DNA of 41,198 nucleotides, from positions 1 to 41,198 of the forward strand of contig SXKJ01000425.1 in NCBI GenBank assembly GCA_005778115.1, given 5' to 3'. The notes beneath the pieces are model-generated. The model was not told the DNA's origin, ran no database searches, and saw nothing but the letters and a program-made list of their open reading frames with translations. Below are positions 19,834 to 34,705 of this stretch, piece after piece (within the stretch, counting starts at the first letter, position 1; every line of letters starts with the position of its first letter). The DNA comes from Planctomyces sp. (GTDB lineage: Bacteria > Planctomycetota > Planctomycetia > Planctomycetales > Planctomycetaceae). The translations under genes and the position numbers were made by a program.

Positions 19834-20769
19834 TCATCTACCGCCACGCCGGCCGCGAGATCGCGAATCGAGATACTGACCCAACGCGCGGTCATAAGGA
19901 TCAGTCGTTTTGAGTTTGAAGTAATCGCAACCCAACGCTCCGCACCCCGCCGACAGTGCCGCGCAGAACCGACGGTAGTTTTCCAAGTAGTGCTTCCGCA
20001 ATCGATGCGGATCGACGAGCACTCGATTCGTCAGCCGTTCGAGATTCCGAAACTGCGTCGGCCGAGCGAAAGGAAACTCTTCTTCCTCCGGCGCGACCAC
20101 GTGCAGCAACACAACCTCGTGCCGCGAGTGCCGCAACTCCTTCATCGCCGCCAGCACCTTCTCGACCTCATCGAACATGTCGCTGACAACGAAGACCAGG
20201 CTCCGCCGCTTGAGCGTTGGCACGATGCTGGAGAGCACTTCGCCAAGGCTCGTCTCACCCCCCGGTTCTCGCTCGCCGAGCAAGTCCGTAATGCGTTGAA
20301 AGCTGTGGGCCGCCGTCGAAGGCTGAGCAATGTCGCGCACCACCGTGTCGAACGTCATCAACCCCACTGAGTCACGCTGCGACAGCAACAGGTAGCCCAT
20401 TGCCGCCGCGACCTGCCGAGCGTAATGCCACTTGCTGAGCGTCTTCCCCGCGTAGGCCATGCTCCCCGACGCATCGACCAGCAGGTAAGACCGCAGGTTG
20501 GTCTCGTCTTCGTACTCTTTGATGTAGTAATGACCGGTCTTGCCGAACGCTCGCCAGTCGATGTGCCGAATCTCGTCGCCGGGGTAGTACTGCCGATGCT
20601 CAACGAATTCGACGCTGGCCCCTTTGAACGGACTCTTGTGCTGTCCGATCAAGTAACCCTCGACAACCAGCTTGGCAACGACCTCCAACTTGCCAAACTT
20701 GGCCAACGCCGTCGGATCCGACAGCGGCACATCATCGCGAGCATTTTTACCGAAGATCGTTTGCATCAT
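19834..20769 (-). CDS. DUF58 domain protein (vWA-like)
   Basis: A 311-residue protein of the DUF58 family. It carries the core YYPGDEIRHIDWRAFGKTGH and a following LLVDASGSM that matches the MIDAS-type DxSGS of von Willebrand A folds. DUF58 proteins usually stand next to a MoxR AAA ATPase and TPR/vWA membrane proteins; no moxR is visible here, so the partner must be elsewhere. No TM helix is present, consistent with a cytoplasmic form. The ATG lies one base after a long palindromic repeat, and the stop overlaps the next reading frame (ATGA). Confidence 0.88.
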   Translation of the reverse strand: MMQTIFGKNARDDVPLSDPTALAKFGKLEVVAKLVVEGYLIGQHKSPFKGASVEFVEHRQYYPGDEIRHIDWRAFGKTGHYYIKEYEDETNLRSYLLVDASGSMAYAGKTLSKWHYARQVAAAMGYLLLSQRDSVGLMTFDTVVRDIAQPSTAAHSFQRITDLLGEREPGGETSLGEVLSSIVPTLKRRSLVFVVSDMFDEVEKVLAAMKELRHSRHEVVLLHVVAPEEEEFPFARPTQFRNLERLTNRVLVDPHRLRKHYLENYRRFCAALSAGCGALGCDYFKLKTTDPYDRALGQYLDSRSRGRRGGR

Positions 20770-20851
20770 CGTAGGTCAGCCTTTCCAGGCTGACCCTTTG
20801 CGTGTTGAGAGTCGGTCGTCGTTCGGGTCAGCCTGGAAAGGCTGACCTACG
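20770..20851. repeat. Perfect 27-bp inverted repeat between the cysteine-rich gene and the DUF58 gene
   Basis: Arms at 20770-20796 and 20825-20851 are perfect inverted copies with a 28-bp spacer. Each arm contains its own hairpin, GGTCAGCC-TTTCCA-GGCTGACC. The right arm includes the stop codon of the 20847-21290 gene. Confidence 0.9.
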
Positions 20852-21290
20852 AATTCCCTTTGCACTTGAAATAGTACCGCTGAATCTCCGCCACACACGG
20901 CTGCCCGTTGGCCGACATCACCGAGCACCGAGCCTCCGGCGTCTTGGCTCGTGCAACGGCCGCCCGTGTGCGAGCGACGCTCCCTTCGGCGACATCCTCT
21001 TCGATTTCGCCGCACATCACCCCGAAGCACCCGCAGATCGGCGCGTCCGCCGACTTGGGATACGCCGGCCGAGTCAGCTTGTCGATCGTCACGACCCGTT
21101 CGAACGCGTCGAAGTAAGCGACTTCACATTCCGGTTGGATGCAGAACATCGCCGTCTCGCCAATCTGCCCGCGAGCCTCCGGCTTCAGCCAAGCATCGAG
21201 CGTAATCCGCTCGACCGCCTGCCCCAGCGAGCCGCAAAACGGGCAGTGCCGCACATCAGAATCCGGTTCGCGAACGAATGCCTTGTTCAT
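20847..21290 (-). CDS. Cysteine-rich CopZ/BFD-like putative iron-sulfur or metal-binding protein
   Basis: 147 residues with ten cysteines. The layout is CPFC (16, 19), C50 and C55, then ICGCFGVMC (86, 88, 93) followed by C122, C132 and C143. This resembles the N-terminal zinc/[2Fe-2S] module of archaeal-type CopZ and the BFD-like [2Fe-2S] fold (CxC near a helix, later Cys residues after a T-rich turn), but without the HMA copper-binding domain. A metal-handling or ferredoxin-like role is inferred. The TAG stop lies in the downstream palindrome. A 114-bp degenerate copy of its 5' end is found at 21876-21989. Confidence 0.7.
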   Translation of the reverse strand: MNKAFVREPDSDVRHCPFCGSLGQAVERITLDAWLKPEARGQIGETAMFCIQPECEVAYFDAFERVVTIDKLTRPAYPKSADAPICGCFGVMCGEIEEDVAEGSVARTRAAVARAKTPEARCSVMSANGQPCVAEIQRYYFKCKGNS

Positions 21291-23637: not shown

Positions 23638-26004
23638 TCATTCGCGTGTCTTCAACACCGCGATCAGATCCAAATGATCTAACCGGCGTCGGACCAACAG
23701 GCCCGACAAGATAGCGGCGATGAGCACGACGGTCGTGGCAAACGAATACGTTGCCGGTTCGATGATCAGCGGGATGCGGTACAGCTCGGTGTCCATGAAC
23801 CAACAGACGAGTTTCGCCAGGCGGTTGCCGATGAATAGACCCAGCGGAATGGCGGCACACGTCAAGATGGCCAGCTCGCCCAGCAGGATGCGCGAGATTT
23901 CCGCGCGCGTCAGGCCGAGCACCCGCAGGCTCGCCAGTTCGCGGCCCCGTTCCGACAGAGCCACGCGCGCGGTGTTGTAGACCACGCCGAACGCGATGAT
24001 GCAGGCGAAGACGACGTTGAAGGCTTGCATGGTCAACAGGTTGTTCATCACGGTGTCGCGGAAGCCTTGAATGGACGCCCCTTTGAGCATCACGCTGGCG
24101 ACGCGCGGAGTCGCTTTCAAACGGCGGTAGAGATCCTCGGCGGCGGCCGGATCGGCGGTGATGGCGATGCTGGTCACGGCCGGGCCTTCTCCCACCAGGC
24201 GATTCAGCGCCCGTGCCTCCATGTAACAGACGGTGCCGAGATATTCCTGACTGAGCGCCGCGATCCGTACCGGACGAACGCGGCGGCTCCCCTCCATGAT
24301 TTCCAGCGTGAGGGTATCGCCGATGCGCACGCCGAGCACTTGGGCCAGTTTTTGATTGAGCACGATCCCTTCCGGCGGCACCGCGACTGGTTCGTCGTTG
24401 TCGTCAATCAAATGATTCAGCGTCGCGTTCAAGTCGATGCCGAGCAGATAGGTCCGCTTCTCGACTTGATTGTGGAAGATTTTGACGCCGACTCCCCGAC
24501 GTGGTTCGGCCAGCAGGACGCCGGGAAGCTGTTGAATCTCATTCAGCGCTTTGCGTGAGGTCGGCTCGCTGAGCGTCACGTCGATGTCGTGCCGATTGAT
24601 GTACTCGAACTGCATTCCGACCAGCCATTCCAGCGAGTCGGCGGAAAACCGGCCGAGCACCAGAATCGCCGCGGCCATCGCGATGCCGCACACGGACAAC
24701 ATCGCCTTGACCGGCCGCCGTTCGATGTTGCGAATCACGATGCGGCCGATTTGCGAGAGCCAGTGCTCAAATCCCAGACGCTCGAAGATCGTCGGATGAA
24801 ACTCTCCCGGCGGTTCCGGTCGCATCGCCTCCGCCGGCGGCAGCGAGACCGCGCGGCGCACAACGTTCAGAGTGCCGATCATCGACGCCACCACGCAAAC
24901 GCCGAACGCTCCCGCGATGACTTGCGGAGGGAGCTGATAGTGTAGTTCCGGGTATCGATAGAACTCGGCATAGATGCCCATCATCTTGCGGCCGATGAAC
25001 GCTCCGGCGATCGTCCCCGCGATGCCCCCCACCACGCAGATCAGCAGCACCAGCTTCAAGTAGTGCCGCCCGACCGCCCAGTGCGAATAGCCAAACGCCT
25101 TCAGCGCCGCGATCTGATCTCGCTGCAACGCGATGATCCGCGACAGCACGACGTTGAGCAGGAACGCCGCGACGCCCAAAAAGATCGACGGCACGATCAT
25201 GCCCATGCGTTTGAGGTTGCTGATCTCATCGTTGAGAAACCGATGCGAGATTTGATCCGCACGCGCGTGCGAACCGAAGCCGCCATGCTTTTCGATGATC
25301 TGGTCCAACCGCCGGACGACCTCTCCCTCCGACGCCCCCGGCAGCAGTTCGAGGAGCACGTCGTTGAACGCCCCCTTCATGTCGAACGCCGCTTCGAGCG
25401 CCTCGCGGCCCATCCACAGAATCCCGAATCGCTTGTCATCCGGCACGAGCTGCCCGTACTTGATTTGATAGACGTACTCCGGCGACAGCGCAACGCCAAC
25501 GATCCGCAACTTCTTCTTCTTGCCGTTGATGACCGCCGAGATCTGATCGTTGAGTTCCAGCTTATGAGCTTTGACAAACCCCTCGCTGGCGAGCACCTCA
25601 TCATCGCTGCGTGGTTCGATGAAGCGTCCTTTGCGCAGGAACAGCGAACAGAGATCGGTCGGCTGCGGATGCTCCGGGATCGACACGAGCCGTCCGGCGA
25701 CAGGTTCCGGGAACGACGGTACGTCCAACGTCACATCCTCGACCACGCGTGTCTGAATCCGCGCGACTCCGGGAATCTCTTCCATCCGCTCGGCGACCGT
25801 CAGCGGAGCACGCTTAATCCGAGCAAACACCTGCGGGAACCGATTGTCTTCATAGAAGCCATCCATCGTCCCCTGCAACGAGACCATCGCGCTGGAGGAC
25901 ATCACAAACGTCGCGACCCCGCACGCCATGACCGCGCAGATCGCCAGCACCTGCCCCTTCATCAGGAACACGTCGCGAACCAGTTTGCGATCAATCGCCC
26001 GCAT
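23638..26004 (-). CDS. ABC transporter permease, FtsX/MacB type with two FtsX domains
   Basis: About 788 residues from MRAIDRKLVRDVFLMKGQVL. One N-terminal TM helix is followed by a large periplasmic (MacB-PCD-like) region, a three-helix FtsX domain near residues 280-420, a second external region, and a second FtsX domain ending in the C-terminal helices (AILSGLLVRRRLDHLDLIAV). This duplicated layout is typical of LolC/E- or MacB-like exporters that move lipids, lipoproteins or peptides. No ATPase or membrane-fusion gene is adjacent. I place the start at 26004; the open frame continues to 26820 only because a palindromic repeat upstream is stop-free, and that extension has no protein character. 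Confidence 0.85.
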   Translation of the reverse strand: MRAIDRKLVRDVFLMKGQVLAICAVMACGVATFVMSSSAMVSLQGTMDGFYEDNRFPQVFARIKRAPLTVAERMEEIPGVARIQTRVVEDVTLDVPSFPEPVAGRLVSIPEHPQPTDLCSLFLRKGRFIEPRSDDEVLASEGFVKAHKLELNDQISAVINGKKKKLRIVGVALSPEYVYQIKYGQLVPDDKRFGILWMGREALEAAFDMKGAFNDVLLELLPGASEGEVVRRLDQIIEKHGGFGSHARADQISHRFLNDEISNLKRMGMIVPSIFLGVAAFLLNVVLSRIIALQRDQIAALKAFGYSHWAVGRHYLKLVLLICVVGGIAGTIAGAFIGRKMMGIYAEFYRYPELHYQLPPQVIAGAFGVCVVASMIGTLNVVRRAVSLPPAEAMRPEPPGEFHPTIFERLGFEHWLSQIGRIVIRNIERRPVKAMLSVCGIAMAAAILVLGRFSADSLEWLVGMQFEYINRHDIDVTLSEPTSRKALNEIQQLPGVLLAEPRRGVGVKIFHNQVEKRTYLLGIDLNATLNHLIDDNDEPVAVPPEGIVLNQKLAQVLGVRIGDTLTLEIMEGSRRVRPVRIAALSQEYLGTVCYMEARALNRLVGEGPAVTSIAITADPAAAEDLYRRLKATPRVASVMLKGASIQGFRDTVMNNLLTMQAFNVVFACIIAFGVVYNTARVALSERGRELASLRVLGLTRAEISRILLGELAILTCAAIPLGLFIGNRLAKLVCWFMDTELYRIPLIIEPATYSFATTVVLIAAILSGLLVRRRLDHLDLIAVLKTRE

Positions 26005-26337
26005 GACAAACCCTGGAGTGCTGCGGCTCGACGCAGCCCTCCTTCCATTTGGAAGAACGACGACATTGTCCGCGAAACCGACCTTCGATCTCTCGCCGCG
26101 TCTATGAGTTGCGATCGCCGCGATTCCAATCGAATGGAGGGCTGCGTCGAGCCGCAGCACTCCAGGGGTCATCATCGCGACCGCGATGACCAACCGCCAA
26201 TAACCGTCCCGAAGTTTCGCGTTCCAATTTCTTTGTTCCGTCGATTGTAAATGAACCGAGAGAGGATAATTTGCCGACCCAAGCGTTCGGGCCGCTCGGC
26301 GAATTCCGCATTGTTCCACGTAGGATTCTGAGAAGAG
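26005..26337. other. Divergent intergenic region of 333 bp
   Basis: No gene is credible here. Half of it is the 157-bp palindromic element at 26011-26167. The other half is relatively A/T-rich and should hold the promoter of the plus-strand gene at 26338; GATAAT at 26265-26270 is a possible -10 box, but I see no strong -35. Confidence 0.5.
26011..26167. repeat. Inverted repeat with perfect 32-bp arms upstream of the permease gene
   Basis: Arms at 26011-26042 and 26136-26167 are perfect inverted copies with a 93-bp spacer. Each arm contains the small hairpin GCTGCG-GCTCGA-CGCAGC. It begins 7 bp upstream of the permease ATG. Confidence 0.9.
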
Positions 26338-26808
26338 ATGGCGAGAAACGAAGCAGAGAACTCCCGGCGATTGATCGTCGGTGCCGCGATCGCAATTGTG
26401 TTGGTCGTGGTGGTTGGATTCTTCTTCATGGGAAAGAAGGAGGCCAAGGTCAGCGGCACCGTGACGTTGGATGGCACGCCTCTGTCCGCCGCGCAAGTGG
26501 TCTTCATCGGTGAGGACGCGGACAATCAATCGCCCGTCGTGGCCCAGTCCGACGAAGCGGGGAAGTTCAGCCTGACCGGCAATACCGGCGGGGGGGTGCC
26601 TCTCGGAAAGTATCGAGTCATGGTGACCAAGGAGTCGCTGGCGGATGGAACCCGTCCAGCCGGAGAAGGGTTGAAAAAAGCTCGCGTCGACGGCCTGCTG
26701 GTGAATACGCTGGCCAAGGTGTACGAGGACCAGGCCACGACGCCCTTGAAGTTTGAACTTCATCACGGGGCCAACACGATCAATCTGGAATTGAAGAAAC
26801 AGCCTTAA
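26338..26808 (+). CDS. Membrane-anchored transthyretin-like/carboxypeptidase regulatory-like domain protein
   Basis: 156 residues. One N-terminal TM helix (LIVGAAIAIVLVVVVGFFFM, about 12-31) is followed by an Ig-like beta domain that opens with AKVSGTVTLDGTPLSAAQVV and continues with DEAGKFSL and LGKYRVMVTKES. This is the compact fold that planctomycetes encode in dozens of copies as lipoproteins or anchored proteins, usually next to DUF1559 genes, as here (gene at 26956). The function is unknown. It lies upstream of the DUF1559 gene and is separated from it by a palindrome. Confidence 0.85.
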   Translation: MARNEAENSRRLIVGAAIAIVLVVVVGFFFMGKKEAKVSGTVTLDGTPLSAAQVVFIGEDADNQSPVVAQSDEAGKFSLTGNTGGGVPLGKYRVMVTKESLADGTRPAGEGLKKARVDGLLVNTLAKVYEDQATTPLKFELHHGANTINLELKKQP

Positions 26809-27897: not shown

Positions 27898-27934
27898 TCC
27901 TGTCACGGCTTTGCTCTCGTTCCCTCTGGCTCAT

Positions 27935-30900
27935 CTACCTGGCCCGTGTGCGCATCGACGATCGAGACGCGGAGGTCAGTGCATGCGCTCGGACGGCTGG
28001 CATTTCCTTCACGGGGGCGATTGGTCGCTGCCCGGGACTGCCTCGCTCAAGCAACTCGACCACGACGACTTGTGACTCGTGACTGAGCGACGGTGACAGC
28101 CATTTCTCGTCGGCGATCAATGTGCCGACGCACCGTCCGTCGAGGTAGACCAGCCGATGCGCCGCGATGCAGGGGACTCGCGGTTGATCGTCGAGAACGC
28201 CCACCAAGTTCAACGGATCGGCGGCCGAGATCAACACGAATTCGCGTCCCTTAGCCTGACTCTCCGAGTCGGCTTCCGAGCCTTGTAATCCATCGCGCAG
28301 CAACCGCAATTGCCGAATCGACTCGCTCATCGAGAACTGCTCGCCCGCCACGCCGGAGATGAATCGTCCGCCACGAATCTCGCCGCGTGCTTCCAGTCGC
28401 CGATAGACCTGCAACAGCTCCCACCACGACGGCGCGCCGGATTCGCGAGCCAACAAGTCTTTGAACATCACCCCCCAACGCCGCAGCAGTTGCCACGCCC
28501 ATTGCTCGACGACTTCGTGGCAGCGAAGTGGGGAGTGGGGAGTGGGGAGTGCGGAGTGGGAGACAGGGACGAGCGTTTTGGTTTCTGTCTTCAACTCCGC
28601 ACTCCGCACTCCGCACTCCGCACTCCATTCCCGCCACAACGACCAGCGGCCCGCCGATCCCGCGACGCCGCGTTGACGCAGGAGTCCCGGCCGGCCTCGG
28701 CTCGCGCCTCGCGACGATGAACGGCACACGTCGCTGATGAGCTGTCGTAATCCAGAAAAACCGTCAGCCGTGACCAAGCCGCGCGACACGAGTTCTCCTA
28801 ATCCATCTTCAACATGAGCCGGCAACAAGCGGCTCTCGCGGAGCAGGTCGGTCAGGAACATCGCCCCCCGCGTTCGCAGCAACAACGCCAGGTCTTCTGC
28901 GGAGGAACTCAGTATTTCGTGGGGCAGGTTTTCAACCTGCCCGGACTTGGGGTCTGGCAGGTTGAAAACCTGCCCCACGACATTCAGCCACGGCAAATCG
29001 CCACGCAGGAACAACGACACCGGCACGACGCGCGTCACTCCAGACATGGGCCTGCTTTTCTCGGGATCGACACGCGGCGGATACAGCCGCCCCCACGCGA
29101 CTTCGCCCCCCAGGCACAACTCGTCGAGCCACTCCGGCCGATAGTGCTCGATTCGCGCCGGCAAGACATCTCGCTCCCATGCGACAGCGGGAATGTCCAA
29201 GCCTTGTAGCATCGCGATCACTTCAAACAGGCCGTTCGATCCTGTTCGCTTGTCGTTGCCAGTGATCCCCTGCCGCCGCGCGAGATACCGCCAGTACGTT
29301 GAAACATCGACCGGCTCAATCAACCGCCGCAAGCCTTCAATCGTCAGCCGATGAATGCGAGCGAGCAACCGACGATGGCACCATTCGTTGGGAGTTGGGA
29401 GTTCGGAGTTCGGAGTGTGGAGTTGAACGACAGATTTATCCGAGACTCCAGTCTTCAACTCCGCACTCCGCACTTCGCACTCCCCACTCTCGCGAAACAC
29501 CCCGCGTAACACCGTTCCCTCCCCTTCGAGGGCCTCCAGCGCGGACGAGACTTGTGACTCGGTGAACGTTGTTTGGTTCGCCAGTTCCGCTGACGTAATC
29601 GGCCCGCAGACTTCCAACCAACCGCGTAGAACGGCGACTCGCGCGTCGGTCGTTTCCCATGCGGTGCGGACTCCAGAGGGAGCAGCGATGACAGGATCAA
29701 TCGTCTGGTTGGGAAAAAGCACCGTGATCGCAGGCAATCGCTCGGCTGCGACCCATGCGAGTTGTCCATTCGGCAGCGTGAGCGAGGTCGCTCGGCGATC
29801 GGCGATGAGTTCGGCGAAGTCACTCTCGTGGCCGACGCTGCTAGCGTCGGCGCGGATACTGGCAGCATCCGCCACGGTGTGCGGAATGAAGAATAGGCTC
29901 AGCAGCGCGTCGTGCAGTTCGTCGGCGTTACGGATCAGCGGCTGAGCCTCACGCACGACTTGCTCGATCGCCGCCGGATCGAGCTTCGCCAGATCTCGCA
30001 CATCGTCGGGATTGAGCGTGCGGCGGTTCGCGACTGCGCGAGCACGACGCTCCTGAATCTCGCCGCCATCGAGGAACGCATACGGATTCGCGTTGAGCAA
30101 CTCGTAACAGAACGGCGATGGCTCGCGCGTGTCGCGAGCGATCAGTTCGATCCGTCCCGCCTCAATGTCTTCGAGCACTCGATGCAGCCCCGCGAGATCC
30201 ATCGCTTCGGTCAGGCAGTCGTACATCGTCTGTTGAACCAGCGGATGATCGGGCAACTCGTGATCGCCGACGATGTTCTCCTGGCAGCCGGTCAGCTTGG
30301 GAAACACGGCCGTCAATAAATCGTCCGAACGAAAGCGTTGCAGGGCAGGGGGGACTTTCTGTCCGTTCCGCATGCGCAGGACCAAGAGAGCTCGGTTCAT
30401 GTTCCAACGCCAGCGCGTCTGAAACAGCGGAGTTTGCAGAATCGCCTGCTCCAGCAAGTTGCGAGAGTTCTCGCGATTGAGCATCGGGAACATGCTCTCC
30501 AAAGGAAACGAATGCTGTGGGCCGAGCGACAAGATGAAGCCGTCATCGTCGGCGGTCGCCTGCAATTCAAAATCGAACGAGCGGCAGAACCTCTTCCGCA
30601 TCGCCAGTCCCCATGCCTTGCAGACTCGTGCCCCAAACGGAGCATGAACGACCATCTGCATCCCGCCGGATTCGTCGAAGAATCGTTCAAAGACGATCTT
30701 CTTCTGATTCGGGATCACGCCGATGGCCGCCTTCTGCGACTCGGCATAGTTCGCGATTTGTTGCGCCGCCCATTCAGAGCAATTCGTCTCCGCGAGCAGC
30801 CAGCCGGCAAGCGAGGGTGGCACGCCCTGACCATCGGGAAGGGCGTGGGTGACGGCTCCTCCACGCCCTTCCCGATGGTCAGGGCGTGCCACCCAGTCAC

Positions 30901-32830
30901 TTTGCGTCTTTGCGTCTTTGCGTTGAACATCGACCAACCATTGCTCAATCTCTTCCCGCAACCGCGACACTTCCTCAGACAACTCCCACGAGCGCCCAGG
31001 TGCTTCGCCGCGCCAGAACGGCACGGTCGGCGGCGCACCACCAGCATCGGTCACCACCACATCTAGCTTGCGAATCCCTTGAAAGCGCCACGACGTTGAG
31101 CCGAGCAAGAAGATGTCCCCCCCTTGGCTCTCGACAGCAAAATCTTCGTCGATCGTGCCGACCACGACGCCATCGGGATCGGCGACGACACGATATGAGC
31201 CGATGTCCGGGATCGCTCCGGCGTTCATCGTCGCCGCGATGCGTGCGGCGGGCCGAGCTTTGATGCGACGTTTAACGCGGTCGTGATGCAGATAGACTTT
31301 GCCGCGACCGCTCGTGTCGGTGATCCCCTCGGCCATGATTTGTACGACCGAATCGAACTGCTCGCGAGTCAGATCGCGATACGGATACGCCCGGCGGAAG
31401 ATCTCGAACAGTTCGTCCGACGACCACTCTTCCGCCGCTGCGACCTCAGCCACGATCTGTTGAGCCAGCACGTCCAGCGGCGCGACCGGAATCTGAATCA
31501 CGTCGAGTCGCCCCGCGCGAACCGCTCGCATTAGAGCCATTGCTTCGACCAACTCATCACGAGTCATCGCGAACAGCCGCCCCTTCGGAGTCGCTTTGAC
31601 CGCGTGCCCCGCTCGACCGATGCGTTGCAGAAACGTCGCGATCGCGCCCGGCGAGCCAAGCTGAATCACGAGGTCGATGTAGCCAATGTCGATTCCCAGC
31701 TCGAGCGAGGCCGTCGCCACGACACACTTCAGCTCGCCGTCCTTTAATCGCCGTTCCGTGCGCAATCGCAACTCCGCCGATAGCGATCCGTGATGACTGC
31801 TGATTTTGTCCTCGCCCAGCAACTCAGTCAGTTGATGAGCGACCCGCTCGGCCATGCGCCGTGTGTTGACGAAGACCAACGTGCTGCGGTGCGAGTTGAT
31901 GAGCTCCACCACGCGCGCATTGATCTGCCCCCAATGCTCGTAGGAACAAACCGCTCCGAGTTCGAGTTCCGGGACTTCGATGGCAAGGTCGAGGTGTCGC
32001 GAATGTCCGACGTCGATGATGTGGCAGTGGGGAGTGGGGAATGGGGAGTGGGGAGTGGATGGCATGTCATTGTCGAGAGAGTCACCAAATGGCAGCGCTT
32101 GCTGCCTTTCCGCAAGCTCTGCGTTTCCTGCCTTCTTGTCTTCACTCCCCACTCCCCACTCCCCACTCCCCACTAAAAACTCCGCCATCCGTTCAATCGG
32201 GCGTTGAGTTGCGGAAATGCCGATGCGTTGCAGCGGTTTCTTACAGAGCGATTGCAGACGTTCGAGGCTCAGCGCGAGATGCGAGCCACGTTTGTCTCGG
32301 ACGAGCGCATGGATTTCATCGACGATCACGACTTCGGTTTTTCGGAGTGCGACGCGGCCCTTCACAGAGGTCAGCATCAGGTAGAGTGACTCCGGCGTCG
32401 TGACCAGAATGTGCGGCGGCTTGCGGACGAGTGTCGCTCGTTGCGACGTCGAGGTGTCGCCGGTCCGCAGTCCGACACGGATCGGAGCCGGTTGCTCGCC
32501 GTGAATCGTCCGCAGGCCGGATTGCTCGACCAGTTCAGTGATCTCTCGCAGCGGCACGTCGAGGTTGCGGTGCATGTCGTTCGATAACGCTCGCAACGGC
32601 GAGACGTACACGACGCGAATCCCGTCGCCGAGTTTTTCTTTCAGCGAGCGTCGCAGCAGCCGGTCGATGACCGCGAGGAATGCCGTCAGCGTCTTGCCGC
32701 TGCCGGTCGGAGCGGCGATCAGCACATGCTCGCCATTCGCGATCGCCGGCCAGCCCAGCCGTTGCGGTTCCGTCGGCGCGGGGAAACGCGAGGCGAACCA
32801 TTGCTCGATGATCGGGTGGAACTGCGACAT
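27935..32830 (-). CDS. lhr: Lhr-type ATP-dependent DNA helicase carrying five in-frame repeat insertions
   Basis: 1631 residues from MSQFHPIIEQWF (start 32830; the frame is open to 32938 through a palindrome). It is an SF2 helicase: APTGSGKT (40-47), TTPES, DEIH (171-174), SAT (206-208), ATASLELGIDIG and QRIGRAGHAV. The Lhr-specific winged-helix and C-terminal core regions follow (for example MQMVVHAPFGARV and LDGGEIQERRARA). Bacterial Lhr proteins are 3'-5' helicases linked to DNA repair. Five stretches have no counterpart in the family and coincide with palindromic repeats: residues about 221-269, 634-672, 1114-1148, 1284-1305 and 1402-1436. Without them the length would be about 1450, normal for the family. 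All catalytic motifs are intact. Confidence 0.9.
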   Translation of the reverse strand: MSQFHPIIEQWFASRFPAPTEPQRLGWPAIANGEHVLIAAPTGSGKTLTAFLAVIDRLLRRSLKEKLGDGIRVVYVSPLRALSNDMHRNLDVPLREITELVEQSGLRTIHGEQPAPIRVGLRTGDTSTSQRATLVRKPPHILVTTPESLYLMLTSVKGRVALRKTEVVIVDEIHALVRDKRGSHLALSLERLQSLCKKPLQRIGISATQRPIERMAEFLVGSGEWGVGSEDKKAGNAELAERQQALPFGDSLDNDMPSTPHSPFPTPHCHIIDVGHSRHLDLAIEVPELELGAVCSYEHWGQINARVVELINSHRSTLVFVNTRRMAERVAHQLTELLGEDKISSHHGSLSAELRLRTERRLKDGELKCVVATASLELGIDIGYIDLVIQLGSPGAIATFLQRIGRAGHAVKATPKGRLFAMTRDELVEAMALMRAVRAGRLDVIQIPVAPLDVLAQQIVAEVAAAEEWSSDELFEIFRRAYPYRDLTREQFDSVVQIMAEGITDTSGRGKVYLHHDRVKRRIKARPAARIAATMNAGAIPDIGSYRVVADPDGVVVGTIDEDFAVESQGGDIFLLGSTSWRFQGIRKLDVVVTDAGGAPPTVPFWRGEAPGRSWELSEEVSRLREEIEQWLVDVQRKDAKTQSDWVARPDHREGRGGAVTHALPDGQGVPPSLAGWLLAETNCSEWAAQQIANYAESQKAAIGVIPNQKKIVFERFFDESGGMQMVVHAPFGARVCKAWGLAMRKRFCRSFDFELQATADDDGFILSLGPQHSFPLESMFPMLNRENSRNLLEQAILQTPLFQTRWRWNMNRALLVLRMRNGQKVPPALQRFRSDDLLTAVFPKLTGCQENIVGDHELPDHPLVQQTMYDCLTEAMDLAGLHRVLEDIEAGRIELIARDTREPSPFCYELLNANPYAFLDGGEIQERRARAVANRRTLNPDDVRDLAKLDPAAIEQVVREAQPLIRNADELHDALLSLFFIPHTVADAASIRADASSVGHESDFAELIADRRATSLTLPNGQLAWVAAERLPAITVLFPNQTIDPVIAAPSGVRTAWETTDARVAVLRGWLEVCGPITSAELANQTTFTESQVSSALEALEGEGTVLRGVFRESGECEVRSAELKTGVSDKSVVQLHTPNSELPTPNEWCHRRLLARIHRLTIEGLRRLIEPVDVSTYWRYLARRQGITGNDKRTGSNGLFEVIAMLQGLDIPAVAWERDVLPARIEHYRPEWLDELCLGGEVAWGRLYPPRVDPEKSRPMSGVTRVVPVSLFLRGDLPWLNVVGQVFNLPDPKSGQVENLPHEILSSSAEDLALLLRTRGAMFLTDLLRESRLLPAHVEDGLGELVSRGLVTADGFSGLRQLISDVCRSSSRGASRGRPGLLRQRGVAGSAGRWSLWREWSAECGVRSAELKTETKTLVPVSHSALPTPHSPLRCHEVVEQWAWQLLRRWGVMFKDLLARESGAPSWWELLQVYRRLEARGEIRGGRFISGVAGEQFSMSESIRQLRLLRDGLQGSEADSESQAKGREFVLISAADPLNLVGVLDDQPRVPCIAAHRLVYLDGRCVGTLIADEKWLSPSLSHESQVVVVELLERGSPGQRPIAPVKEMPAVRAHALTSASRSSMRTRAR
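28525..28627. repeat. Heptamer-built inverted repeat inside lhr (copy A)
   Basis: The left arm consists of tandem GGGGAGT-type heptamers and the right arm of ACTCCGC heptamers (four in a row), with a spacer of about 30 bp. It is translated in lhr as SAECGVRSAELK ... SALPTPHSPL. Confidence 0.85.
28918..28979. repeat. Perfect 24-bp inverted repeat inside lhr
   Basis: Arms 28918-28941 and 28956-28979 are perfect inverted copies with a 14-bp spacer. The core GGCAGGTT-TTC-AACCTGCC is itself a hairpin. It is translated as VGQVFNLP ... GQVENLPHE. Confidence 0.9.
29389..29490. repeat. Heptamer-built inverted repeat inside lhr (copy B)
   Basis: Same family as 28525-28627 but more diverged. The left arm has GGGAGTT/CGGAGTT units and the right arm ACTCCGC/ACTCCCC units. 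It is translated as GECEVRSAELKTG ... HTPNSELPTPN, sharing VRSAELKT with copy A. Confidence 0.85.
30815..30894. repeat. Perfect 34-bp inverted repeat inside lhr
   Basis: Arms 30815-30848 and 30861-30894 are perfect inverted copies with a 12-bp spacer. Each arm contains CACGCCC and GGGCGTG, which pair with each other. A short TTTGCGTC tandem lies at about 30900-30925 and is translated as RKDAKTQ. Confidence 0.92.
32025..32174. repeat. Heptamer-built inverted repeat inside lhr (copy C)
   Basis: GGGGAGT heptamers at 32025-32058 are mirrored by ACTCCCC heptamers at 32143-32174, with a spacer of about 85 bp. It is translated as GSGEWGVGSED ... STPHSPFPTPH, between the SAT motif and the second RecA domain. 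Confidence 0.88.
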
Positions 32831-32888
32831 CCACGAGTCCTTCCAGTCGTAGCTTGACTCTCCGAGTCGGTAAACGAATCGACGTATA

Positions 32889-32965
32889 GGCGAGCGGGAT
32901 GGCGTCAGCCCCCGGTTTTTTGCGGAGAACGTGACCACCGGGGGGCTGACGCCGCCCCGCTCGCC
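32889..32965. repeat. Near-perfect 28-bp inverted repeat upstream of lhr
   Basis: Arms 32889-32916 and 32937-32965 are inverted copies differing by two bases and one insertion. It lies between the lhr start and the SGNH gene's stop and keeps the lhr frame open upstream of the true start. Confidence 0.85.
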
Positions 32966-32988
32966 AATTTCTTCTTAGGCTCGCCGCG

Positions 32989-33762
32989 TCAGTATAGCCA
33001 GAGCTTGGACCCGTCCGGCTGTCTCAACACGGGTTGTGAGGAATACTGCTCGCGGCCGAACCAGCGCCGCTCATAGGGTCGTTGACGCCAAAAATGCAGC
33101 GAGTCGTTCGGACTGACGGCTCGGAAGTCAGCAGCTTGTGTCTCGTCGAACCACGAAGCCAGCAATTCTTGCCAAGCCGCCGCGCGATGACGCCGGAGAA
33201 TGTGAATCGGGTCGAAGCCATACCACTCGCCGCGCAGCTCGGGAGTTGGGATCTCGAACTGCCGGCCGAGATCGATGAGGTGTTGATTGAGTCGCGTCGT
33301 CTTGGATTCAAGTTCCTCGAACTGAATTTGGCTGTTCGGAAAGAACAGTTTGCGAAAGAACTGAAACCGTGTGCGGCCCAGTGTCCGCGCGCTGGCGAGC
33401 GGCAGTTGAGTCAGCACGATTCTGGCTCGCATGGCCCGCAACCGTTCCAAGCAGGTCGCGACCCAAGCGGCGATCTGGTCTGGTTCGATCCCGTACATCA
33501 AGTCGTTGCCGACGTCGGTGATGAGCGTTCGCGGCGGCTCATCGGACGTCGGCTGCGCGGCGAGGTCATCCCATACGCGACAAGGCACGATGCCGGGCAA
33601 CTCGCGCGGTCCGATGCGATTCCAAATCCCGAATGAGCGGCCGTGTCCATGCGCGGCGAAGAGTTCCAGCGGCTCAGGAAAAGCTCGATGCAATCCGCGA
33701 ACCAATCGCGGAAACGAAAGCGTCACGTTGCTGGCACCAAGCAGAATGATTCGCGGCATCAT
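32989..33762 (-). CDS. SGNH/GDSL-like hydrolase family protein
   Basis: 257 residues without a signal peptide. The N-terminal LLGASNVTLSF resembles the GDSN block I with the nucleophile Ser11, DVGNDLMYG matches the GND block III, and FDPIHI near residue 190 matches the DxxH block V. A GHGRSFG segment occupies the block II position. The family hydrolyses esters or acetyl groups; the substrate here is unknown. Using Ala at the position before Ser is slightly atypical. It is followed by the palindrome upstream of lhr, and lhr lies downstream on the same strand. Confidence 0.75.
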   Translation of the reverse strand: MMPRIILLGASNVTLSFPRLVRGLHRAFPEPLELFAAHGHGRSFGIWNRIGPRELPGIVPCRVWDDLAAQPTSDEPPRTLITDVGNDLMYGIEPDQIAAWVATCLERLRAMRARIVLTQLPLASARTLGRTRFQFFRKLFFPNSQIQFEELESKTTRLNQHLIDLGRQFEIPTPELRGEWYGFDPIHILRRHRAAAWQELLASWFDETQAADFRAVSPNDSLHFWRQRPYERRWFGREQYSSQPVLRQPDGSKLWLY

Positions 33763-34631: not shown

Positions 34632-34705
34632 CCGTACCGCGACCGTCAGGGAGCGGCCTGGTACGAGCGTTCGCCGTGAGCCGCTCCCTGACGGTCGCGG
34701 TACGG
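34632..34705. repeat. Perfect 26-bp inverted repeat, copy 1 of a pair flanking a gene
   Basis: Arms 34632-34657 and 34680-34705 are perfect inverted copies with a 22-bp spacer. The arm sequence is nearly the same as that of the element at 35257-35330. Confidence 0.92.

What the first reader, a model, noticed from the sequence alone, without database searches (positions are those of the whole stretch)
27935..32830. Five different palindromic elements inserted in frame within one Lhr helicase gene
The lhr frame is uninterrupted for 1631 codons, yet five separate inverted repeats lie inside it: 28525-28627, 28918-28979, 29389-29490, 30815-30894 and 32025-32174. Each is stop-free in the coding frame and sits outside the helicase motifs, and together they add roughly 180 residues with no counterpart in the Lhr family. 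Similar elements otherwise lie between genes. The nearest precedent is the Rickettsia palindromic elements, which insert in frame into genes, but here at least three unrelated sequence families share one gene. This suggests a mobile repeat system able to colonise surface loops of proteins.
Basis: partly seen in the sequence, partly recalled or inferred. Interest (0 to 1): 0.8.

Follow-up and report, generated by a model that had tools for sequence, protein, structure and literature searches.

The report
Palindromes recurrently occupying Lhr helicase linkers
In a planctomycete DNA helicase, the floppy linkers between folded domains are filled with in-frame DNA hairpin repeats of several kinds, and related species carry different hairpins in the same linkers, so these linkers look like long-lived refuges for repeats that the cell has to translate.

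Summary
The lhr frame (32830-27935, minus strand) is open for 1631 codons and holds five strong inverted repeats at the stated places, plus a decayed sixth at 29827-29876. The repeats are of three kinds: hairpins with arms of tandem 7-mers (three), a REPIN-like doublet (arm with 167 genome matches) and a palindrome with 8 arm matches. In a 277 kb sample such repeats also lie in frame in other genes (HrpA, DnaE2-type polymerase, TrpE/PabB-like), not only between genes. They are not five simple insertions peculiar to this gene: in nine congeners the same six places vary, and 25 of 26 repeat-bearing lhr sites have a different palindrome in another congener; 26 of 90 lhr genes fetched from the family carry strong palindromes there. 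AlphaFold2 confidence is low at all six; the core evolves at dN/dS 0.05-0.09, so it is no pseudogene. Intragenic REPs and Rickettsia palindromic elements are precedents. What appears new is re-occupation of fixed linkers by unrelated families, and heptad arms that change in concert. Best mechanism: arrival and turnover of dispersed repeats, filtered by selection for stop-free, in-frame copies in tolerant linkers.

The parts
27935..32830 (-). lhr (large helicase-related) coding sequence, 1631 codons from the conserved MSQFH start; the open frame continues upstream to a GTG at 32938
32025..32174 (.). site A: hairpin with arms of tandem heptads (GGGGAGT)n and an 85-nt core; linker between the two RecA-like domains (aa 258-304)
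32087..32104 (-). QQALPF inside the site A core; resembles a beta-clamp-binding motif (consensus recalled, from no call)
30815..30894 (.). site B: perfect 34-nt-arm palindrome, aa 682-708; arm has 8 matches in the genome, two of them these arms
29827..29876 (.). site C: decayed palindrome (score 9, shuffle maximum 8); clear in congener G008 (score 19)
29389..29490 (.). site D: heptad-arm hairpin, aa 1150-1183
28917..28980 (.). site E: REPIN-like doublet, two inverted GTGGGGCAGGTTTTCAACCTGCC units around a 14-nt loop, aa 1320-1341
28525..28627 (.). site F: heptad-arm hairpin, aa 1439-1471

Best explanation
The gene encodes a working Lhr helicase whose six variable, probably disordered inter-domain linkers are tolerance sites for dispersed palindromic repeats. 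Shown: the repeats are multi-copy in the genome, lie in frame, cluster in six linkers, and at these linkers related species hold different palindromes or nearly none, while the folded core is under strong purifying selection. Inferred: new palindromes keep arriving (REPIN-like ones perhaps moved by REP-associated Y1 transposases; heptad hairpins by 7-nt slippage plus copying between arms or between loci), arrivals that break the frame, add a stop or disturb a folded domain are mostly purged, and linker arrivals persist. Linkers therefore turn over their repeat content while keeping the reading frame.
For: Clustering: 55 of 62 strong repeats (score 16 or more, loop up to 200 nt) in the lhr set lie in six site windows holding 11.2% of residues, in 26 of 90 genomes; the windows were drawn after seeing the repeats, so the binomial P of about 1e-44 is descriptive. 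Congeners: 25 of 26 repeat instances in lhr (at six linkers, counted once per species) have a different palindrome at the matching place in at least one other congener, against 3 of 52 random repeat-free lhr positions; other genes 3 of 5 against 0 of 170; between genes 12 of 28 against 2 of 28. Structure: low-confidence segments 225-265 and 652-667 of the N model (add 36) and 314-323, 443-468, 613-629, 729-758 of the C model (add 711) overlap sites A-F. Selection: dN/dS 0.051-0.087 over 1185 codons, 7 pairs with G000. Dispersal: site-E arm 167 matches at up to 3 mismatches, backwards control 0; site-B arm 8, control 0. Other in-frame hosts among 9 genes looked up: HrpA, DnaE2-type polymerase, IMS polymerase-like, TrpE/PabB-like, sulfatase-GDSL, two PSD1/PSCyt2, FGE-sulfatase/WD40, FtsX-like. 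16 Y1_Tnp matches in the genome, five with a palindrome within about 200 nt of the transposase frame (L136-L140).
Against: Not linkers only: of 17 repeats in the 9 other genes looked up, 12 lie outside Pfam matches, 3 inside one (two in PSD1, one in FGE-sulfatase) and 2 at an edge or split of one. Seven of the 62 lhr repeats lie outside the six windows, three of them at a further variable place near aa 1057. No Y1 locus held the site-E arm within its 2-3 kb stretch at up to 3 mismatches. No clean empty site with a target duplication was found for any lhr element; 'empty' alleles at site F still hold one-sided heptads. Frame test on 138 repeats in 35 stretches: 18 in frame and open, 5 out of frame, 2 in frame with a stop, 3 with flanks on opposite strands, 110 undecided; whether the out-of-frame ones lie between neighbouring genes was not checked, and only one of the five G000 lhr elements was decidable by that test. 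None of 13 single-contig genomes in the lhr set has such a repeat (7 of the 13 are one genus), so the evidence comes from multi-contig assemblies. Both models also have low-confidence segments without palindromes (4 short ones in N, 7 in C; C model pTM 0.40), and low confidence partly reflects poor alignment of variable segments.
Confidence: 0.72

Rival explanations
1. Existing palindromes attract new ones: the sites are insertion or recombination hot spots (hairpin-targeted insertion or replacement), so same-site turnover reflects targeting rather than selection alone.
For: A different palindrome at the matching place is also common between genes, where linker constraint does not apply: 12 of 28 sites against 2 of 28 control. 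Insertion sequences are reported to target REPs (PMC1525189, seen only as a search listing with the start of its abstract).
Against: Clustering in linkers within lhr needs selection anyway; the intergenic control is small (28).
Confidence: 0.3
2. The heptad hairpins are not mobile: they are linker sequence expanded by 7-nt slippage, with the two arms kept complementary by hairpin-templated (quasipalindrome) correction.
For: In repeat arms only periods 7 and 14 stand out. At site A, own arm pairs of 10 species score 19.3 on average against 8.0 for cross-species pairs, 0 of 20000 permuted pairings as good, while the core motif stays. Arm length differs between congeners at an intergenic heptad hairpin. 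Cores differ from locus to locus.
Against: The unit in lhr partly matches the unit common in that genome: (GGGGCGA)3 gives 107 overlapping matches in G002 and 46 in G010, 0 in G004; (GGGGAGT)3 40 in G000, 0 in G010, which suggests exchange between loci; but G009 has both units. Some cross pairs equal or beat own pairs (G007 with G008, G002 with G010, G011 with G000), as shared descent predicts. Site D is not significant with 4 species (1666 of 20000).
Confidence: 0.3
3. The palindromes are selected for a function of the linker, of the mRNA hairpin or of partner binding.
For: Host genes in the sample include helicase and polymerase genes, as also reported for intragenic REPs (PMC3733652).
Against: Sequence, length and kind change freely between congeners, and many relatives have short plain linkers; the sample of host genes is small.
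Confidence: 0.08
4. Assembly artefact or decayed gene.
For: The window is a whole contig of a 515-contig draft; no single-contig genome in the set shows the repeats.
Against: In-frame repeats of score 14 or more at the same sites in eight of nine congener assemblies (the ninth, G006, reaches 12), with differing sequences; dN/dS below 0.09.
Confidence: 0.03

Closest known systems
Intragenic REPs (GTAG- and CGTC-tagged palindromes; PMC3733652: section 15 read whole, other passages seen)
   Same: Dispersed palindromes inside open frames, some genes with two, in repair genes including DnaE2 and helicases, most in Opitutus terrae (Verrucomicrobia); different REPs at about the same site of recB in two Xanthomonas species; flexible linkers suggested by the authors.
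   Different: Here five or six per gene, three kinds in one gene, re-occupation of the same six linkers in 13 genera, and heptad-arm hairpins (the word 'heptamer' does not occur in that paper).
Rickettsia palindromic elements (Ogata 2002 not held; known here through PMC3733652 and recall)
   Same: Palindromic DNA lying in frame inside open frames of likely functional proteins.
   Different: A planctomycete lineage and other hosts; sequence relation to RPEs was not tested.
REPINs (PMC3116915, passages seen)
   Same: Site-E element: two inverted REP-like units, each itself a hairpin behind GTGG, around a spacer that differs from copy to copy.
   Different: No RAYT found beside it; tag GTGG, not GTAG; 6 of 20 complete copies examined lie inside predicted genes, whereas that paper treats extragenic space.
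Heptameric G-rich repeats of Xanthomonas and Nostoc (PMC4692102, passages seen) and cyanobacterial STRRs (recalled)
   Same: Dispersed G-rich 7-nt tandem repeats, in some cases as convergent inverted pairs.
   Different: Here found as paired hairpin arms, in frame in genes, with units that differ between species and change in both arms.
Coding palindromes in nematomorph mitochondria (PMC6649704, abstract and outline seen)
   Same: Long inverted repeats within functional coding sequence.
   Different: There both arms encode conserved residues; here they lie mostly in variable linkers.

Membership tests
REP / REPIN (site-E element) | high-copy dispersed short palindromic unit | tested here: met
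   81 + 86 arm matches at up to 3 mismatches, backwards control 0
REP / REPIN (site-E element) | two inverted units with a non-conserved spacer | tested here: met
   20 complete copies in 23 loci examined, spacers 10-34 nt, differing by eye
REP / REPIN (site-E element) | GTAG or CGTC tag | tested here: not met
   arm begins GTGG
REP / REPIN (site-E element) | cognate RAYT gene flanked by the same repeat | tested here: inconclusive
   16 Y1_Tnp loci of 2-3 kb in a 94% complete draft, none with this arm at up to 3 mismatches
REP / REPIN (site-E element) | transposition | not testable with these tools
   no population data
Rickettsia palindromic elements | in-frame presence in working genes | tested here: met
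   frame open, core dN/dS below 0.09, other genes; protein not observed
Rickettsia palindromic elements | sequence of an RPE family | not tested
   no RPE sequence was fetched
Heptamer tandem repeats (STRR-like), sites A, D, F | tandem units of 7 nt | tested here: met
   periods 7 and 14 raised; 8 of 76 and 15 of 63 elements at period 7, at most 1 at any other
Known structured RNA family | Rfam gathering score | tested here: not met
   26 matches, all below the gathering score, 25 of them microRNA models

The most novel reading that the evidence does not exclude
The heptad-arm hairpins are a distinct self-renewing genetic element: two arms of a 7-nt unit with the G-rich arm first, rewritten in concert (copying between arms and between dispersed loci), that live for whole genera inside coding linkers around native motifs and so rewrite the linker peptide of each species without leaving the site. 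All 21 heptad elements of one set had the G-rich arm first; two that I saw outside that set do not (G009 site A, score 14; L234:15545-15603).
Probability: 0.22. Interest if true: 0.78.

Novelty: new variant of a known kind. Interest (0 to 1): 0.6.

Why it matters
It suggests that coding linkers, not only intergenic DNA, can be durable habitats for bacterial palindromic repeats, and it offers a natural experiment (26 genomes, six linkers of one conserved helicase) in which arrival, replacement and arm homogenisation can be read species by species. If true it is a route by which disordered linkers of bacterial proteins gain and change sequence.

Tried and rejected
Pseudogene: rejected (dN/dS 0.051-0.087). 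Chance: rejected. One-time insertion at five empty sites: rejected as a general description. Known structured RNA: no gathering-level Rfam match in 27900-33100. Transposase beside the site-E family: not found. Loop-is-native idea (arms set around old linker DNA): suggestive at sites A and E by eye only, left open. The heptad search (83 matches) has a poor control: the reversed pattern gave 26, and the reversed pattern outnumbered the pattern in some genomes, because its reading (GGGGTGA-like) is itself a heptad of this kind. Searches for print precedents; no paper that they listed, as far as its title and abstract start show, describes palindromes in lhr or in-frame palindromes turning over at fixed linkers; most subscription papers are not held. 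Coverage and dropped rows: lhr was fetched from 90 of the 151 genomes searched; a duplicate fetch of G037 was dropped; one repeat with a loop over 200 nt was dropped, 63 to 62; repeats within 250 nt of a fragment end were dropped, and 59 of the 77 left had a matching place; Pfam was run on 9 of the 12 non-lhr genes with an inside repeat. 'Different palindrome' counts heptad hairpins with different units as different. Gene calls are my own codon-usage calls.

Full report
What is there. The window is the whole contig C411 of a 7.43 Mb, 515-contig draft genome. Four near relatives found by protein are planctomycete or planctomycete-like draft records by their titles or by kinship (L120-L123; one is titled Kuenenia), a fifth is a distant gammaproteobacterial record; no call names this genome. 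lhr runs 32830-27935 on the minus strand with the Lhr domains. Five strong inverted repeats lie in it where reported, each folding far better than shuffles, plus a decayed sixth at 29827-29876. In protein order they are sites A, B, C (decayed), D, E, F.

What the elements are. Sites A, D and F are hairpins with arms of tandem 7-mers. Among strong repeats only periods 7 and 14 stand out: 8 of 76 elements of the own-genome sample and 15 of 63 of the lhr family set pass a 68% self-identity test at period 7, at most one at any other period. Their cores differ from locus to locus. Site E is two inverted 23-nt units, each itself a hairpin, with 167 unit matches in the genome at up to 3 mismatches and none to the backwards control; 20 complete copies seen in 23 loci have differing 10-34 nt loops, the REPIN arrangement. 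One of them (L030) pairs a CACG unit with a CAGG unit. Site B is a perfect palindrome whose arm has 8 matches.

Genome context. In 20 evenly numbered contigs (first 20 kb at most) plus the window, 277 kb, there are 76 repeats of score 16 or more and none in block-shuffled sequence. By a simple codon-usage gene call (87% coding) 25 lie inside genes, 40 between genes and 11 over gene ends. Nine of the twelve host genes other than lhr were looked up: HrpA with three repeats, a DnaE2-type error-prone polymerase with three, an IMS polymerase-like gene with two, a TrpE/PabB-like gene with the site-E family, a sulfatase-GDSL fusion with one, two PSD1/PSCyt2 genes with two each, an FGE-sulfatase/WD40 gene with two and an FtsX-like permease with one. 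Of these 17 repeats 12 lie outside Pfam matches, 3 inside one and 2 at an edge or split. Of the 20 complete site-E-family copies, 6 are inside predicted genes, 5 of them read in the VGQV or VGQL frame.

Relatives. Strong lhr matches were found in 10 of 12 genomes of the genus, the own included; G001 and G005 gave only weak matches. In the nine congeners, where covered (G002 and G010 are partial), the same six places show the largest length differences; smaller ones lie near aa 1550, at aa 1400 and at the C-terminus. They hold palindromes of changing kind: site A heptad units GGGGAGT, GGGGCGA, GTCGGCT or GGGCAGT, with weak or no repeat in some species; site B unrelated palindromes in G000 and G008 and weaker ones in G004 and G011; site F heptads in G000 and G009, a palindrome with arms of about 50 nt in G008 and G011, another in G004. 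In the lhr of 90 genomes fetched from the 151 searched, 55 of 62 strong repeats fall in the six site windows (11.2% of residues), in 26 genomes of 13 genera by the labels; the windows were drawn with the repeats in view. With syntenic fragments of nine congeners, 25 of 26 lhr repeat instances have a different palindrome at the matching place in at least one other species, controls 3 of 52; these are instances at six linkers and so not independent. Other genes: 3 of 5, control 0 of 170. Between genes: 12 of 28, control 2 of 28.

Linkers and selection. AlphaFold2 models of aa 37-734 and 712-1633 have low-confidence segments over all six sites, and further ones elsewhere, four short ones in the N model and seven in the C model, whose pTM is 0.40. 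In the sequence match to solved Lhr (7lhl) the aligned pieces either side of sites A, B and D are 9, 21 and 5 residues apart. The aligned core shows dN/dS 0.051-0.087 against seven congeners. The site A core has a QxALPF-like motif in the congeners (QLPLPF and QRVLPF occur too) and QRxLF-like sequences in several other genera; its likeness to a clamp-binding motif is recalled, not tested.

Arms change in concert. At site A the two arms of a species fit each other better on average (19.3) than arms of different species (8.0), 0 of 20000 permuted pairings as good; near relatives share units and some cross pairs equal or beat own pairs, so this is not a strict probability. Site E passes the same permutation, mainly because G010 and G004 differ from the rest and three species have no element; site D with four species does not (1666 of 20000). 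The form of the site-E element follows the majority form of the genome in 5 of 5 carriers, counted at one mismatch as CAGG to CACG matches: G000 107 to 10, G007 201 to 42, G008 103 to 82, G009 334 to 62, all with CAGG in lhr; G010 72 to 255, with CACG in lhr. Heptad units follow the genome only in part. This points to exchange with dispersed copies or fresh arrivals as well as arm-to-arm copying; I cannot separate them. All 21 heptad elements of one set have the G-rich arm first, against 69 to 30 (12 equal) for other palindromes; two contrary heptad hairpins were seen outside that set.

Mechanism. Shown: dispersed families, in-frame placement, clustering in linkers, different palindromes at the same places, purifying selection. 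Inferred: arrival by RAYT-type movement for the REPIN-like family (16 Y1_Tnp matches, none seen beside that family) and by slippage with hairpin-templated copying for heptads; purging of harmful arrivals. Whether old palindromes attract new ones is a live rival, favoured by the intergenic result.

Novelty. In-frame palindromes in Rickettsia and intragenic REPs in repair genes are in print, with one case of different REPs at about the same site of recB (PMC3733652). The multi-site, multi-family, multi-genus re-occupation and the concerted heptad arms were not met in my searches (listed under Tried and rejected). I file it as a new variant of a known kind.

Noticed in passing
window 26011-26167: In-frame palindrome with a 93-nt core in an FtsX-like permease frame (23638-26529); the matching places of G007 and G010 lack it, a like palindrome lies at L224:1303-1460 of G008.
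   Followed up: partly
L203:1746-6269 and L210:1626-7225: HrpA helicase with three in-frame palindromes, and neighbouring DnaE2-type and IMS polymerase-like genes with three and two.
   Followed up: partly
window 32087-32104: QQALPF in the RecA1-RecA2 linker, with QxALPF- or QRxLF-like counterparts in relatives, resembles a sliding-clamp-binding motif (recalled).
   Followed up: no
L142 and L147: lhr of G096 and G048 appears as two frames parted at site B by 1.2 and 2.3 kb; one search gives a 2322-aa open frame for G048, which I did not reconcile.
   Followed up: no
L232 (G002) site C against L226 (G009): The site-E family appears at site C as a collapsed 27-nt palindrome in G002 and a full doublet in G009.
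   Followed up: no
L030:1452-1523: A site-E-family doublet whose two units belong to different subfamilies (CACG and CAGG), which suggests that units are exchanged singly.
   Followed up: no
L136, L137, L138, L139, L140: Y1 transposase matches with strong palindromes of other families within about 200 nt (possible RAYT-REP pairs); 11 of the 16 Y1 stretches hold a palindrome somewhere.
   Followed up: partly
window 34632-34705 and 20769-20852: Intergenic palindromes; the matching place holds a heptad hairpin or array in G010 and G008 (first) or an unrelated palindrome in G008 (second).
   Followed up: partly
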